Positions 2 through 5,908 of a DNA stretch of 5,908 nucleotides are shown piece by piece; position 1 is the first letter of the stretch, and the number at the start of each line of letters is the position of its first letter. A model generated the notes under the pieces. It had not been told where the DNA came from. It was given only the letters and a program-made list of their open reading frames with translations, and searched no databases. The translations under genes were made by a program, and so were the position numbers. Source of the DNA: Deltaproteobacteria bacterium RIFOXYA12_FULL_61_11 (lineage in GTDB: Bacteria > Bdellovibrionota_F > JAHFAK01 > YA12-FULL-61-11); the NCBI GenBank assembly GCA_001799195.1, contig MGSU01000035.1:1-5908 (forward strand), in the 5' to 3' direction.

Positions 2-2761
2 TGGACCCGGCAGATCGTCTTCGAGCGTCTCAGCCTGGCACGCGAACAGCTCCCGCCAGGCGTGGAGCCCGAACTCGGCCCGCTCTCGACCGGCCTCGGC
101 GAGATCCTCCAGTACACCCTGGAAGGAGAAGGCAAGAGCGCGATGGAGCTGCGCACGGTCCAGGACTGGATCGTCGCACCCCTGCTCAAGCCCATCCCTG
201 GAGTGAACGAGGTCAACAGTTTCGGCGGCGAGGTCAAGCAGTACCAGGTGCTGATCTCGCCCGAGAAGCTCCTCAAGTATGACCTCACGGTGAACGAGGT
301 CGTGGAGGCCGTCGAGCAGGGCAACGCCAACGCCGGCGGCGGTGTCGTCGTGCGGGGCTGGGAGCAGCTCTACCTGCGCGGCGTGGGTCTGATGAAGGAC
401 ATCCCCGACATCGAGCGCATCGTTCTCAAGTCCAAAGACGGGTCTCCCGTCTACGTCCGCGACGTCGCCGACGTGGTGATCGGCGCCGAGCCCCGGCAGG
501 GGGCTGTTTCTCGCGACGGCCAGGGCGAGGCCGTGGCCGGCATGATCATCATGCTCAAGGGTGCGAACTCCGAGGACGTGGTCAGCCGGGTCAAGGAGTC
601 GATCGGGAAGATCCGGAGCACGCTGCCCGAGGGTGTGAAGCTCAACGTCTTCTATGACCGAACCTCGCTCATCGAGGCATGCATCAAGACCGTGGTCGAC
701 GCGCTGCTCGAGGGCGGCATCTTTGTCATTCTCATCCTCTTCCTCTTCGTCGCCGAGTTCCGGACCGCGCTCATCGTCGTGTTCTCACTGCCGCTGACCT
801 TCCTGGTGAGCTTCATCCTCATGGGCTCGGCGGGCATCAGCTCGAACCTCATGAGCCTGGGAGGTCTCGCGTTCTCCGTCGGCATGGTGGTCGACGGGTC
901 CATCGTGGTCGTCGAGAACATCCGGCGGCATCTCGCGCACCGGACCGAGAAGGAGCACAAGCGCCGCATTGTGGCCGAGGCGCTCGTCGAGGTCGCAAAA
1001 CCGGTCGCCTTCTCAATCCTCATCATCGCCATCATCCTGGTGCCGCTCTTCACGCTCCAGGGTATCGAAGGCAAGATGTTCGCCCCGCTCGCTGCGACGA
1101 TGCTCCTCGCCATGCTGGTCTCGCTCGTCGTTGCGTTGACCGTCATTCCCGTCCTCTCCGACGTCTTCCTCAAGCAGGTCCCCGAGAAGGAGTTCGGCTT
1201 CATCCACCGCTTCCACCGAGCCTACGTGCGACTGCTCGGCCGCGCGGTGCGACACCCGGCCGTAACGCTCGGGAGCTCGGGCGGGGTACTCGTCGCTTCC
1301 CTGGCGCTCCTGCCGTTCATGGGCACCACGTTCATGCCCGAGCTCGATGAGGGATCGATCGCCGTAAACGTGGTGCGACTCCCGAACGCGTCGCTCGAAG
1401 GCTCGGTGAAGGTTGCGACCTTCCTCGAGCAGCGCCTGCTCATGTTTCCCGAGGTCGACACCGTGGTGAGCAAGACGGGCAGGGCCGAGATCTCGGAGGA
1501 CCCGATGGGCCCGGAGCAGACCGATATCTTCATCATGCTCAAACCCCGCAAGCAGTGGGGCACGGGCCGAGACAAGCCCGAGCTGGTGGAGGCCATCCAG
1601 AAGGAGCTCGCCCAGCTCCCGGGCCTGCGCTTCTCGTTCTCGCAGCCGATCGCGTTGCGCGTGAACGAGCTCATCTCGGGCGTGAAGAGCGACCTGGCCG
1701 TCAAGGTCTTCGGCCCCGACCTCGAGGTGCTCGAACAGTTTGCCGACCGCGCTGCCACGACCCTGAGTGGCATCGAGGGAGCGCGGGACGTGAAGGTCGA
1801 GCAGGTGTCCGGAATGTCCCAGCTCGACGTGGTCATCGACCGCGAGGCCGTGGCAAGGCACGGTCTCACGATCGGGGACGTCAACGCCGTCATCGAAACG
1901 GCCGTCGCGGGCAAGCAGGCGACAACCTTGATCGAAGAGCAGCGTCGGTTCGCGGTCGTCGTGCGATTCCCCTTATCAGCTCGCGGCGACCTCCCGGAGC
2001 TCGAGCGCCTGCTGGTCATGGCTCCTGACGGCGAGCACGTGCCGCTCTCGCAGATCGCCGACTTCCAAGTCGTGGAGGCGCCCGCGCAGGTGAGCCGCGA
2101 GAACGGCATGCGGCGAGTGGTCGCCGAGGCGAATATCCGCGGTCGCGACCTCGGCGGCTTCGTGAGCGAGGTTCAGCAGAAGCTCGCGCCGCTCGTGAAG
2201 GAACTCCCGTCCGGCTACTACGTCGAGTACGGCGGTCAGTTCGAGAACCAGCAACGCGCCATGCGCCAGCTCGCCCTCGTGGTGCCGATCGCGCTCCTCC
2301 TCATCATGGTGCTGCTCTACCTGGCGCTCGGGTCCATCTGGAACGCGCTGCTGGTGCTCCTCAATCTCCCGTTCGCGCTCGTCGGCGGGGTGGTTGCGGT
2401 GGTCGCCTTCCAGATGCCGGTCTCGGTATCGGCGGCAATTGCCTTCATCGTACTGCTCGGCGTCGCGGTCCAGAACGGCGTCGTCCTCGTGGCCTTCTTC
2501 CGCCAGCTCCAAGAGCAGGGAGAGTCCGTGGCCGACACGGTCCTCAAAGGCTGTGACCTCAGGTTCCGCCCGCTGCTCATGACCGCTCTCACGAGCTTCA
2601 TCGGCCACCTGCCGATGCTCTACGCGACCGGTTCCGGCGCGGACATCCAGAAGCCGCTTGCAGTCGTGGTCATGGGTGGACTCATCACCTCGACGTTGCT
2701 CACGCTCATCGTGCTGCCGACGATTTACTCACTGTTCGCGAAGCGTTTCGCTCCTGCCTAG
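2..2761 (+). CDS. CusA/CzcA-family heavy-metal efflux RND pump (5' partial)
   Basis: Inner-membrane proton/metal-cation antiporter, the pump subunit of a tripartite export complex. The frame is open from the left edge; the GTG at 62 is an internal valine because the preceding codons already read as family sequence (WTRQIVFERLSLAREQLPPG). Counting from base 2, 919 residues are present. Against about 1050 for the family, roughly 110 N-terminal residues including helix 1 are missing. Eleven membrane segments are visible: about 231-306 (three), 334-389 (two), 420-440, 757-832 (three), 858-876 and 884-912, with two periplasmic porter regions before 230 and at 441-756. Helix 4 carries the proton-relay Asp298 and Glu305 in VVDGSIVVVEN; a serine (292) stands where CzcA has a further Asp. 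Positions matching CusA Met573, Met623 and Met672 appear to be Asn456, Gln506 and Glu556, which argues against Cu(I)/Ag(I) and for a divalent cation; this alignment is from memory. The family is certain, the metal is not, so no symbol is given. The gene ends with TAG at 2759-2761. Confidence 0.95.
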   Translation, partial: WTRQIVFERLSLAREQLPPGVEPELGPLSTGLGEILQYTLEGEGKSAMELRTVQDWIVAPLLKPIPGVNEVNSFGGEVKQYQVLISPEKLLKYDLTVNEVVEAVEQGNANAGGGVVVRGWEQLYLRGVGLMKDIPDIERIVLKSKDGSPVYVRDVADVVIGAEPRQGAVSRDGQGEAVAGMIIMLKGANSEDVVSRVKESIGKIRSTLPEGVKLNVFYDRTSLIEACIKTVVDALLEGGIFVILILFLFVAEFRTALIVVFSLPLTFLVSFILMGSAGISSNLMSLGGLAFSVGMVVDGSIVVVENIRRHLAHRTEKEHKRRIVAEALVEVAKPVAFSILIIAIILVPLFTLQGIEGKMFAPLAATMLLAMLVSLVVALTVIPVLSDVFLKQVPEKEFGFIHRFHRAYVRLLGRAVRHPAVTLGSSGGVLVASLALLPFMGTTFMPELDEGSIAVNVVRLPNASLEGSVKVATFLEQRLLMFPEVDTVVSKTGRAEISEDPMGPEQTDIFIMLKPRKQWGTGRDKPELVEAIQKELAQLPGLRFSFSQPIALRVNELISGVKSDLAVKVFGPDLEVLEQFADRAATTLSGIEGARDVKVEQVSGMSQLDVVIDREAVARHGLTIGDVNAVIETAVAGKQATTLIEEQRRFAVVVRFPLSARGDLPELERLLVMAPDGEHVPLSQIADFQVVEAPAQVSRENGMRRVVAEANIRGRDLGGFVSEVQQKLAPLVKELPSGYYVEYGGQFENQQRAMRQLALVVPIALLLIMVLLYLALGSIWNALLVLLNLPFALVGGVVAVVAFQMPVSVSAAIAFIVLLGVAVQNGVVLVAFFRQLQEQGESVADTVLKGCDLRFRPLLMTALTSFIGHLPMLYATGSGADIQKPLAVVVMGGLITSTLLTLIVLPTIYSLFAKRFAPA

Positions 2762-2784
2762 AACATTACCTAGAACTAGTCACC

Positions 2785-2819
2785 GAAAAACTGGTCTGGA
2801 ATAGGGGTCAGTCTTTTTT
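2785..2819 (+). terminator. Possible intrinsic terminator of the RND gene
   Basis: An A-run (2786-2790) is followed by ACTG (2790-2793), a wobble-containing stem and loop, then CAGT (2809-2812) and a run of six T (2814-2819). The A- and T-runs can extend the stem. It lies about 25 bases after the pump's stop codon, where a terminator is expected, and the A-tract/T-tract symmetry could let it work on both strands. The inner stem is weak (several G-U pairs), so this is a moderate call. The segment from 2798 (GGAATAGGGGTCAGTC followed by T's) also resembles short dispersed repeats found near IS200-like/REP-associated transposases, an alternative that rests on memory. Confidence 0.4.
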
Positions 2820-2829
2820 CGACGCGTCG
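2820..2829. repeat. Perfect 10-base palindrome
   Basis: CGACGCGTCG reads identically on both strands and sits directly after the T-run of the possible terminator. It also marks the switch from AT-rich to very GC-rich sequence within the gap. It could be part of a repeat end, a protein-binding site or chance; nothing in the window distinguishes these. Confidence 0.35.
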
Positions 2830-2831
2830 GG

Positions 2832-2854
2832 GTGGCGGCAGGGATGCCGACCAC
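2832..2854. repeat. REP-like imperfect hairpin between convergent genes
   Basis: GTGGCGGCA (2832-2840) pairs with TGCCG-A-CCAC (2845-2854) around a GGGA loop: nine base pairs with a single bulged A. Short GC-rich hairpins of this shape between converging 3' ends are typical of REP-type extragenic palindromes, which protect mRNA ends or are mobilised by REP-associated transposases. No second copy is present in the window, so assignment to a repeat family is inference. No T-run follows on either strand, so it does not look like a standard intrinsic terminator. Confidence 0.4.
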
Positions 2855-2932
2855 CATGCGACGTGCAGGAGGCAGCGGCGCCGGAAGCAGCGAGGCTCAG
2901 TGCCCGAGCGGTGGCGAGAGCTTTTCCGCAGC

Positions 2933-5875
2933 TCATTTCATTATTGCAGCGCTAAGTTCGGCGAGCGGGATCGGGTTGTTGCGTAGCATTTCAAGAAGGT
3001 CGGTACGTTCGAGTAGTTTAACTTCATTGTGCGTGGCTTGTTGTTTGGCAGTACCATTAAAAGTCTGATTGGTCACCGCAACCTTTTTGAAGGACAATGC
3101 CGGGTGCTTGGTATGATAGGCTGCCTCACCGGCTACAACATCTTTGATTGCTTCCCAACCCATTGCACACTCATCGCTTGATGATTTGCATTGAATCAAT
3201 AGCCCATTGTTTTCTTTATAGGCAATGAGATCAATGCCTCCATCTCCACCAAATTTTGGGGTCTGAAACACCTGCCAGCCCTGTTTGCCCCATAGGAGGA
3301 CGCAGAATTTTTCAAAGACATCACCGAGGATGCGATCGAGATCTGCTTCTTCGATGGGCTTGGCATCTTCGACCAGCGTATCACTACCGGGTGTGTCGAG
3401 GCCTTCGGTAAATTCATCAATGCTGAGTTCCAAGCCGCCGTTGAGCATATCATCAGCGAGAGCGCGTTTACTCGAGAGGAGTGTATCGAGTTTCTCTTCG
3501 AAGGTAGTGAAGTCATCAGCGACAATCGTAGGGTAATGCACATACACACATTTCGTTTGACCAATGCGGTAGGCGCGATCGGTTGCCTGGTTCTCGACTG
3601 CTGGGTTCCAGGCCCGAGTATAGTGGATGACGTGATTGGCCGCCTGAATGTTCATGCCGAAACCCACGGCTTTTGGCGAAAGAATGATGCAATTGTAGCC
3701 CTGCTGGTGCTGGAAAGCATCGATCTTGGCTTGCCGTCCTGCAGTTGCGCCGGGGCCTGCCTTGTCGTCTCCGTTCACAATTGCTGGTCGGAGCCGGGTA
3801 TGCACACCAATCGCGTGTTGAAGATAGAGTTGTAACTCTCTGAACTCGGTGAAGATAATGGCCTTTTCCTGTTGGTTTCGAATACTGTCGAGGGTGTTCA
3901 GCAACCAACGTAGTTTTGGGGATTCATTGCAGAGGATATCAAGGTTGCGGCCTAGATCAAGGGTTAGTCCGGGCTCACACGGTGCCGCGCAGATACTGCG
4001 AAATCGGTGTAAAAGACCCAGTATCGCGGCACCTTTTTGGCGTAGATCCGTTTCCTTATTCCGGCTCTCTGAATAGTCGCGTATCGCAAGTTGGTACAGT
4101 AGGCGTTGTCGGGGGGAGATCGTTAGGCGTCGGCAAGCCGGCTCGTTATTTTCGATCTTTGGTGGAAGATCTTTCGCAACATCGGTCTTCATCCGCCTGA
4201 GCACGAAGGGTTCGATGAGGCTACGTAGTTTAATAACCGCGGCTTTTTCTTCTTCGGATTGAGCTTCGATGGGGCGGCGATAGGACCGGCTGAACTCACT
4301 CAAGGAGCCAAGATAGCCGGGTTGGATGAAGTCAAACAGACACCAGAGGTCGGCGAGCGAATTTTCGACCGGGGTTCCGGTACAGGCGATCTTGAAACGG
4401 GCTTTCAGCGATTTTGCCGCGTGGGTAATGAGGGTGCCGGGGGTTTTGATTTTCTGCGCTTCGTCACAAACGATCAGGTCGAAATTGATCCTGGCCAAGG
4501 AAAATTCGTAATTACGTAGGGTTTCATAGTTGGTCAGGATGAGGTCGTAGGGCTCTTGCCAACCCGGTTGCAGCAACTTGGTGATTTTTTGAGAACGGAG
4601 GTCGGCATCAATGTTGGAAAGAGGGACCCGAAAAGATGAAAGGGTGTTGCCATAAAGGCTGAGCACCCGCAGGGAATCGGACATAAAAAACTTCTCGGTT
4701 TCTTGAAGCCAGTTTTCCAGCAGGGCAACTGGGGCGACAACAAGACAGGGGTTTGTACTACCTCGCTCATAACGCAACCAGTGAATGAAGGCGAGGAGTT
4801 GCAGAGTTTTGCCCAGGCCCATGTCATCAGCCAGGATACATCCGCGAAGAGCCTCTCGGGGGTCCCCAGAAGCCTTGGTAAGTGACCAGAGCGCTTGTAG
4901 CCAGGCCAAACCGGACCGTTGATGGGGTTTGAGCGGGAGTTCTTCACGAAGTGTTTGGGGGAGCTGCGGCGGCGGCAGGAGACCGTGTTTGGTCTGGGTG
5001 AGGAGATCTCCCAAAGCTTCGCGATAATCGATGATCTCGATATTCTGGCGAAGCAACAACACCGAGGTGCCCTGCGTGGTAGTTGGTTCACTACTGTTCT
5101 TTTCCTCAGGCGTTGGGGGAGGTTCAGGGATTGGGTGCTTTCCTTCTACGACTCTTTGGAGTGTGGCACTGAGTTGCTGAGCCGAAGCGATGACTTCTGC
5201 AAGGGGGAGAATTACACCAGGGGCTTCGGGCAGTTCGATACTGGATTTGCCCTGTTCGGCAGCAATGTTTGCAGTATTGAGGATGGCTTCGATACGAGCT
5301 GAAGATAAGGGAAGGAACATCGGACTATCGGCACCGCTCGGGGTGATCGAAATCCCGACCAAAATATTCTCTGGCACCCAATCACCTGTGAGACTTTTCC
5401 GGGCAATAAACGGGGTGGCGATGGGCCGGAACGTACCAATGCCTTCCACTCGCTGGCTGTACGAGGAAAGGTCGAGAATTTCAGCGGCTTCGAGGGTAAA
5501 AACCCGCCTGCACCACTGATTGAGTGTGTACTGGAGTTGCTGGAACTGGGATTCTGCATCACCACGGAGTTCGAGTTCATACCCTTCCCAGACGCAGAAA
5601 AGCTTGTTGGCCGCAAGCTTTCTACCGAGTTCCTCGAGAAATGTCCGCAGGTGTAGTGGTGTACCTAAAACGAGTTCAATGCTTTCTCCAGTCGGGTCGG
5701 CGGTGTCCGGCCAGAGTTGAAGTACCACCTTGTCGATACCCCGTTCGTTGCGAAGGACCTTGTGGGAAAAAGAGAAGAAATCGATGCCCGCTTCTTTCCT
5801 CGCCTGTTCGAACCGTTCAGCACCGATTTTCGCGTCTCGTCTAACCGTCACAGAAAAGATGCCGCGTTGCGACAA
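2933..5875 (-). CDS. zorD: SNF2 translocase-Mrr nuclease fusion, probable Zorya ZorD
   Basis: Predicted ATP-driven DNA translocase fused to a DNA nuclease, probably the effector of a type I Zorya anti-phage system. From the TTG at 5875 it has 980 residues. Residues 1-245 are unrecognised; 246-268 form a Pro/Glu/Thr-rich linker. The SNF2 ATPase follows: LPLKPHQRSGLAWL (313-326), Walker A ADDMGLGKT (349-357), DEAQ (471-474) and TGTPVEN (499-505). The second RecA lobe has KAIIFTEF (671-678), the GFGMNIQAANHVI segment (738-750) and DRAYRIGQ (766-773). The C-terminal Mrr domain (about 846-965) shows Glu855, GGDGGID with Asp882, then QCK (Gln895, Lys897) and a VAVTNQTF strand (932-939), so both catalytic centres look intact. 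SNF2 plus Mrr at this length matches my knowledge of ZorD; a stand-alone SNF2-Mrr restriction protein is the main alternative. The start is uncertain: TTG has no Shine-Dalgarno, the frame stays open without ATG, GTG or TTG to base 5908, and the next in-frame Met is residue 186. G+C is near 50%, well below the neighbouring pump gene. Confidence 0.88.
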   Translation of the reverse strand: MSQRGIFSVTVRRDAKIGAERFEQARKEAGIDFFSFSHKVLRNERGIDKVVLQLWPDTADPTGESIELVLGTPLHLRTFLEELGRKLAANKLFCVWEGYELELRGDAESQFQQLQYTLNQWCRRVFTLEAAEILDLSSYSQRVEGIGTFRPIATPFIARKSLTGDWVPENILVGISITPSGADSPMFLPLSSARIEAILNTANIAAEQGKSSIELPEAPGVILPLAEVIASAQQLSATLQRVVEGKHPIPEPPPTPEEKNSSEPTTTQGTSVLLLRQNIEIIDYREALGDLLTQTKHGLLPPPQLPQTLREELPLKPHQRSGLAWLQALWSLTKASGDPREALRGCILADDMGLGKTLQLLAFIHWLRYERGSTNPCLVVAPVALLENWLQETEKFFMSDSLRVLSLYGNTLSSFRVPLSNIDADLRSQKITKLLQPGWQEPYDLILTNYETLRNYEFSLARINFDLIVCDEAQKIKTPGTLITHAAKSLKARFKIACTGTPVENSLADLWCLFDFIQPGYLGSLSEFSRSYRRPIEAQSEEEKAAVIKLRSLIEPFVLRRMKTDVAKDLPPKIENNEPACRRLTISPRQRLLYQLAIRDYSESRNKETDLRQKGAAILGLLHRFRSICAAPCEPGLTLDLGRNLDILCNESPKLRWLLNTLDSIRNQQEKAIIFTEFRELQLYLQHAIGVHTRLRPAIVNGDDKAGPGATAGRQAKIDAFQHQQGYNCIILSPKAVGFGMNIQAANHVIHYTRAWNPAVENQATDRAYRIGQTKCVYVHYPTIVADDFTTFEEKLDTLLSSKRALADDMLNGGLELSIDEFTEGLDTPGSDTLVEDAKPIEEADLDRILGDVFEKFCVLLWGKQGWQVFQTPKFGGDGGIDLIAYKENNGLLIQCKSSSDECAMGWEAIKDVVAGEAAYHTKHPALSFKKVAVTNQTFNGTAKQQATHNEVKLLERTDLLEMLRNNPIPLAELSAAIMK

Positions 5876-5908
5876 GTCTAGGAAAAGATGAGACGAAGGG
5901 GAGCATGA

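What the first reader, a model, noticed from the sequence alone, without database searches (positions are those of the whole stretch)
2933..5908. Probable type I Zorya effector (ZorD) at the right edge; zorABC expected beyond it
One polypeptide carries a complete SNF2 motor (Walker A 349-357, DEAQ 471-474, arginine-finger motif DRAYRIGQ 766-773) and a C-terminal Mrr nuclease with intact Asp882 and QCK 895-897. From established knowledge, type I Zorya ZorD has this SNF2_N/Helicase_C/Mrr_cat order and is normally the last gene of zorABCD. The gene points away from the right edge, so zorC, zorB and zorA would be off-window on the minus strand. The specific ZorD call is inference from architecture.
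Basis: partly seen in the sequence, partly recalled or inferred. Interest (0 to 1): 0.75.

Follow-up and report, generated by a model that had tools for sequence, protein, structure and literature searches.

The report
Anti-phage zorD gene cut by transposon
The gene at the right edge is the effector gene of a known type of anti-phage system (Zorya type I), but it is only the last three quarters of the gene: a jumping DNA element has landed inside it and the assembly stops there, so this copy is probably broken and is otherwise ordinary.

Summary
The minus-strand ORF 2933-5908 encodes an SNF2 motor plus a C-terminal Mrr nuclease, with every quoted motif at the quoted residue. It is a ZorD. The best PADLOC profile is ZorD (979 bits), and it groups with ZorD proteins (96/96 support). 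Of eight close relatives, four sit in complete zorABCD operons and three in contig-edge operons that keep zorB and zorC; the eighth is cut at its contig edge.

The gene is not whole. Homology starts at residue ~308 of about 1,100-1,280. The first ~30 residues of the ORF lie in the last 88 bases of the contig, which are the end of a multicopy insertion sequence (IS) found at the tips of five other contigs. Two other insertions of this element, with both flanks present, show identical 5-bp target duplications, and joining their flanks restores open frames. At zorD the duplicated site would be TTCAG, 5816-5820; the partner flank is not held.

The missing ZorD N-terminus, zorC and a true zorA were not found in the 87%-complete assembly. 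Best reading: a type I Zorya locus whose effector gene is interrupted by an IS, probably inactive. New member of a known kind; low interest.

The parts
2933..5820 (-). 3' part of zorD (about residues 308 to the end): middle domain, SNF2 ATPase, C-terminal Mrr nuclease; stop codon at 2933-2935
   Evidence: PADLOC PDLC00632 979 bits over profile 310-1094; 42% identity to Polaromonas ZorD 308-1243; 40-44% identity to four plasmid ZorDs in zorABCD operons
3980..4924 (-). SNF2-related ATPase domain (ORF residues ~329-643; Walker A ADDMGLGKT 360-368, DEAQ 482-485 in 991-aa numbering)
   Evidence: Pfam PF00176 E 7.7e-63; motif positions
3560..3913 (-). Helicase_C domain (ORF residues ~666-783; motif DRAYRIGQ 777-784)
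   Evidence: Pfam PF00271 E 1.2e-12; motif positions
2984..3337 (-). Mrr-type nuclease domain (ORF residues ~858-975; Asp893 and QCK 906-908 intact)
   Evidence: Pfam PF04471 E 9.4e-14; motif positions
5816..5820 (+). TTCAG, presumed 5-bp target-site duplication next to the element
   Evidence: The same element shows matched 5-bp duplications at two other sites (TTAAT, ATCAG) where both flanks are held; joining the flanks restores open frames. At zorD only one flank is held, so this is inference
5821..5908 (+). End A (88 bases) of a multicopy insertion sequence: terminal repeat CACCGATTTTCGCG, then element sequence ending in a ribosome-site-like AAGGGGAGCATGA; the zorD frame reads through it by chance
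   Evidence: Same sequence at tips of C157, C220, C122, C217, C327; the other end of the element, with the same 14-bp terminus inverted, at C106, C190, C221

Best explanation
This is the 3' three quarters of a type I Zorya effector gene, zorD, interrupted after about codon 307 by an insertion sequence with 5-bp target duplications. Before the insertion the protein would have worked as in characterised type I Zorya: the ZorA-ZorB membrane motor senses phage injection and recruits ZorC and ZorD, and ZorD, an ATP-driven SNF2 translocase here carrying an Mrr nuclease, destroys the incoming DNA (that mechanism is from the literature, not tested here). In the sampled genome the insertion removes the conserved N-terminal domain from the frame and separates zorD from any upstream operon. 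The system is therefore most likely inactive, and the rest of the frame has not yet decayed. Shown: ZorD identity, truncation point, element ends, target duplications at two other sites. Inferred: that the same element caused a clean insertion here, that zorABC lie on its far side, and loss of function.
For: ZorD: best PADLOC model, 979 bits; in a 96/96-supported group with ZorDs from Polaromonas, Nitrosospira, Klebsiella, Polymorphobacter, Acidovorax, Methylococcaceae and others, apart from generic SNF2 helicases including the genome's own C100 protein; of those eight relatives four have complete zorABCD, three keep zorB and zorC beside zorD at a contig edge, and one is cut inside zorD. Truncation: three independent alignments start at residue 308-310, and all eight relatives retain the N-terminal domain, L061 in part because its contig ends there. 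Element: six contig tips share end A and three share end B, with the same 14-bp inverted terminus; the pattern read backwards gives 0 hits. Insertions C157/C221 (TTAAT) and C220/C190 (ATCAG) have matching duplications, and joining flanks restores a 235-aa primase-polymerase-like frame and a 383-aa frame.
Against: The far flank of the insertion in zorD is not in the assembly, so a deletion or a misjoined contig at the repeat cannot be excluded. The remaining frame is fully open with intact catalytic motifs, so decay is not visible. Only the sampled assembly is known; other cells of the population may carry an intact gene.
Confidence: 0.8

Rival explanations
1. The zorD gene is intact in the genome and the contig end is an assembly artefact: the graph wrongly entered the repeat at this point.
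For: Short-read assemblies break and sometimes misjoin at repeats, and the contig ends only 88 bases into the element.
Against: The break falls exactly at the element's terminal repeat, as in eight other contigs. For two other insertions both flanks are present with target duplications, so the element really does interrupt genes here. No uninterrupted N-terminal part of zorD is in the assembly.
Confidence: 0.1
2. The truncated frame is still expressed from within or near the element as a shortened, stand-alone SNF2-Mrr nuclease.
For: The frame stays open across the junction with a possible TTG start at 5875, and all catalytic motifs are intact.
Against: No promoter-like site on the coding strand in 2700-5908; a terminator-like hairpin lies at 5874-5860 on the coding strand, though the scan finds about as many by chance. 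No relative lacks the N-terminal domain.
Confidence: 0.05
3. Not Zorya but another SNF2-nuclease defence gene (Dpd DpdE, DISARM DrmD or a stand-alone SNF2 nuclease) that happens to resemble ZorD.
For: PADLOC model PDLC02854, labelled DpdE, scores 638 bits; zorABC were not found in the assembly.
Against: ZorD scores far higher (979 bits). PDLC02854 itself scores 2417 bits on an annotated Klebsiella ZorD in a zorABCD operon, so its label looks wrong. The tree and all neighbourhoods that can be read point to Zorya.
Confidence: 0.04

Closest known systems
Type I Zorya ZorD of Polaromonas naphthalenivorans plasmid pPNAP01 (WP_011797920.1, zorABCD operon)
   Same: 42% identity over 967 aligned positions, same domain order including the C-terminal Mrr nuclease
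   Different: 1,259 residues with the N-terminal domain intact; the window copy lacks the first ~307 and has no zorABC in reach
Solved ZorD chain, PDB 8qy7 / 8qyc (1,080 residues)
   Same: Aligned over residues 309-1073, E 2.9e-180
   Different: Has the N-terminal domain and no match to the Mrr region; the window copy is the reverse
Type I Zorya ZorD of Klebsiella pneumoniae IncR plasmid (WP_004182096.1)
   Same: 43% identity
   Different: No Mrr domain by Pfam; intact operon

Membership tests
Type I Zorya ZorD (protein family) | Best match to ZorD profiles over other SNF2 families | tested here: met
   PDLC00632 979 bits, top of 39 families; in a supported group with ZorDs
Type I Zorya ZorD (protein family) | SNF2 ATPase with intact Walker A, DEAQ and arginine-finger motif | tested here: met
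Type I Zorya ZorD (protein family) | N-terminal ~300-residue ZorD domain | tested here: not met
   Absent from the window copy and not found in the assembly; present in all eight relatives examined, partly in L061. Hence filed as a truncated ZorD gene, not as an intact one
Type I Zorya ZorD (protein family) | C-terminal Mrr nuclease (present in some ZorDs) | tested here: met
   PF04471 E 9.4e-14 with D and QCK; absent from Klebsiella and Polymorphobacter ZorD
Type I Zorya system | zorC (EH-signature) upstream in the same operon | tested here: inconclusive
   No match in the 87%-complete assembly; the same search rings in four known Zorya records; the contig ends before the position
Type I Zorya system | zorA and zorB (MotA/MotB-like) upstream | tested here: inconclusive
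   Only a weak match to the tail part of the ZorA profile, E 0.008, and weak matches to the ZorB profile at E about 1e-4; the contig ends before the position
Type I Zorya system | Protection against phages | not testable with these tools
   needs an experiment
Dpd (DpdE) | DpdE as best profile | tested here: not met
   Best DpdE-labelled model 638 bits against ZorD 979, and that model fits annotated ZorD at 2417 bits

The most novel reading that the evidence does not exclude
The element has turned zorD into an N-terminally shortened, self-standing SNF2-Mrr nuclease that is expressed and works without the ZorABC sensor.
Probability: 0.04. Interest if true: 0.5.

Novelty: new member of a known kind. 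Interest (0 to 1): 0.2.

Why it matters
It adds type I Zorya to a lineage with very few sequenced genomes (two held for its phylum), and it shows a defence gene apparently disabled by a mobile element, which warns against counting a strong ZorD profile hit as a working Zorya system. It also shows that the Mrr nuclease comes and goes among ZorDs of otherwise similar operons. None of this changes the picture of how Zorya works.

Tried and rejected
One search was lost to a wrong reading frame. Identifying the insertion sequence failed: its end has no match in plasmids, viral contigs or the one other genome of its phylum, and only about 90 bases of each end are held, so its transposase family is unknown. 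An early idea that the repeat was transposase-coding and fused in frame was dropped once the inverted termini and target duplications were seen. The weak ZorA-like match on C220 (E 0.008) covers only the tail part of the profile and was rejected as a ZorA. Dpd and DISARM as the true family were rejected on scores and neighbourhood. The main structural paper on Zorya is not held, so its claims about the N-terminal domain were not used. Structure prediction was not run, since profile and sequence evidence already settle the family.

Full report
Observation. The window is a complete contig (C35, 5,908 bases) of a 4.64-Mb, 342-contig assembly that is 87% complete. The minus-strand frame 2933-5908 is open for 991 codons and runs off the right edge.

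Family. PADLOC gives ZorD as the top family (979 bits). The best plasmid relatives are ZorDs in zorA-zorB-zorC-zorD operons of Polaromonas, Nitrosospira, Klebsiella and Polymorphobacter. A scan of 84,980 species genomes gave nothing above 45% identity. Of its four best hits, L060 has zorA (in part), zorB, zorC and zorD, L059 and L062 have zorB, zorC and zorD, and L061 is cut inside zorD by its contig edge; more distant hits from Poribacteria and Bacillota also have all four genes. In a maximum-likelihood tree the window protein is sister to these eight close ZorDs (96/96), away from the generic SNF2 helicases and from the genome's own SNF2 protein on C100. The competing DpdE-labelled model PDLC02854 (638 bits) scores 2,417 bits on the annotated Klebsiella ZorD, so it does not argue for Dpd.

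Truncation. Homology starts at ORF residue 28-31 and at residue 308-310 of full-length ZorDs: PADLOC profile position 310 of 1101, Polaromonas 308 of 1259, PDB 8qy7 309 of 1080. The N-terminal domain missing here is present in all eight relatives, partly in L061, whose contig begins inside it, and in the solved chain.

The repeat. The last 88 bases, 5821-5908, recur at the tips of contigs C157, C220, C122, C217 and C327, always in the same orientation relative to the contig body. A search for the 14-bp terminus CACCGATTTTCGCG found three more contig tips (C106, C190, C221) carrying a different inner sequence behind the same terminus, that is, the other end of the element. The reversed control pattern gave no hits. 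Flanking pentamers pair up: C157 TTAAT with C221 TTAAT, and C220 ATCAG with C190 ATCAG. Joining these flanks restores a 235-aa frame that reads as one primase-polymerase-like protein (by eye, not by a profile search), and a 383-aa frame. So this is an insertion sequence with 5-bp target duplications that interrupts genes in this genome and breaks the assembly. In zorD the duplicated pentamer should be TTCAG (5816-5820); its partner flank is not in the assembly. The element's own gene appears to start just at the contig edge (AAGGGGAGCATGA) and to read away from zorD; this is a reading of the sequence, not a test.

Upstream genes. The own-genome searches for EH-signature, ZorC and the ZorD N-terminus were negative. 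The last scored only the overlap already in the window, at E 0.79. ZorA gave one weak match to the tail part of the profile, and ZorB only weak matches at E about 1e-4. The ZorC search works: it rings at E 1e-117 to 1e-224 in four records with known Zorya and not in this genome. Given 87% completeness and an assembly broken at this element, absence from the assembly does not show absence from the organism.

Mechanism. Published work on type I Zorya describes ZorA-ZorB as a proton-driven membrane motor that recruits ZorC and ZorD to degrade injected phage DNA (PMC12904381; PMC11890865). The window protein has the motor and nuclease parts of such a ZorD. The Mrr domain is present in the window, Polaromonas and Nitrosospira proteins and absent from the Klebsiella and Polymorphobacter ones, so the statement that type I ZorD has it in general is too broad. 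With its N-terminal domain cut off and its operon separated by an element, this copy is most likely inactive; that is inference.

Context. The contig's other gene (2-2761, plus strand) is an AcrB/AcrD/AcrF-type RND transporter, cut at the left edge, in DNA of 63-67% G+C, against 48-56% for zorD. The change in composition suggests that zorD was acquired. Between the two convergent genes lies a dispersed repeat with more than 20 related copies in the genome, which ties the contig to this genome.

Verdict. A correct family call on a gene that turns out to be interrupted. Ordinary in kind; interest 0.2.

Noticed in passing
window 2780-2924: Dispersed repeat between the two convergent genes, with more than 20 related copies (75-97% identity) across the genome; looks like a REP-type element.
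   Followed up: partly
window 2-2761: RND efflux transporter (ACR_tran, 871 bits), cut by the left contig edge, at clearly higher G+C than zorD.
   Followed up: no
L060 3374-4600 and L062 933-1814: In two Zorya operons (a Methylococcaceae and an uncultured proteobacterium bin) a Sel1-repeat protein gene lies between zorB and zorC. A possible type I variant.
   Followed up: partly
PADLOC model PDLC02854: Labelled DpdE but scores 2417 bits on an annotated Klebsiella ZorD in a zorABCD operon; the label looks wrong.
   Followed up: no
G000 contigs C157, C220, C122, C217, C327, C106, C190, C221: A multicopy insertion sequence with terminus CACCGATTTTCGCG and 5-bp target duplications breaks the assembly at nine contig ends (these eight and the window's own); family unknown.
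   Followed up: yes
G000 as a whole: Only one other genome of its phylum is held, so the host is from a poorly sampled lineage.
   Followed up: no
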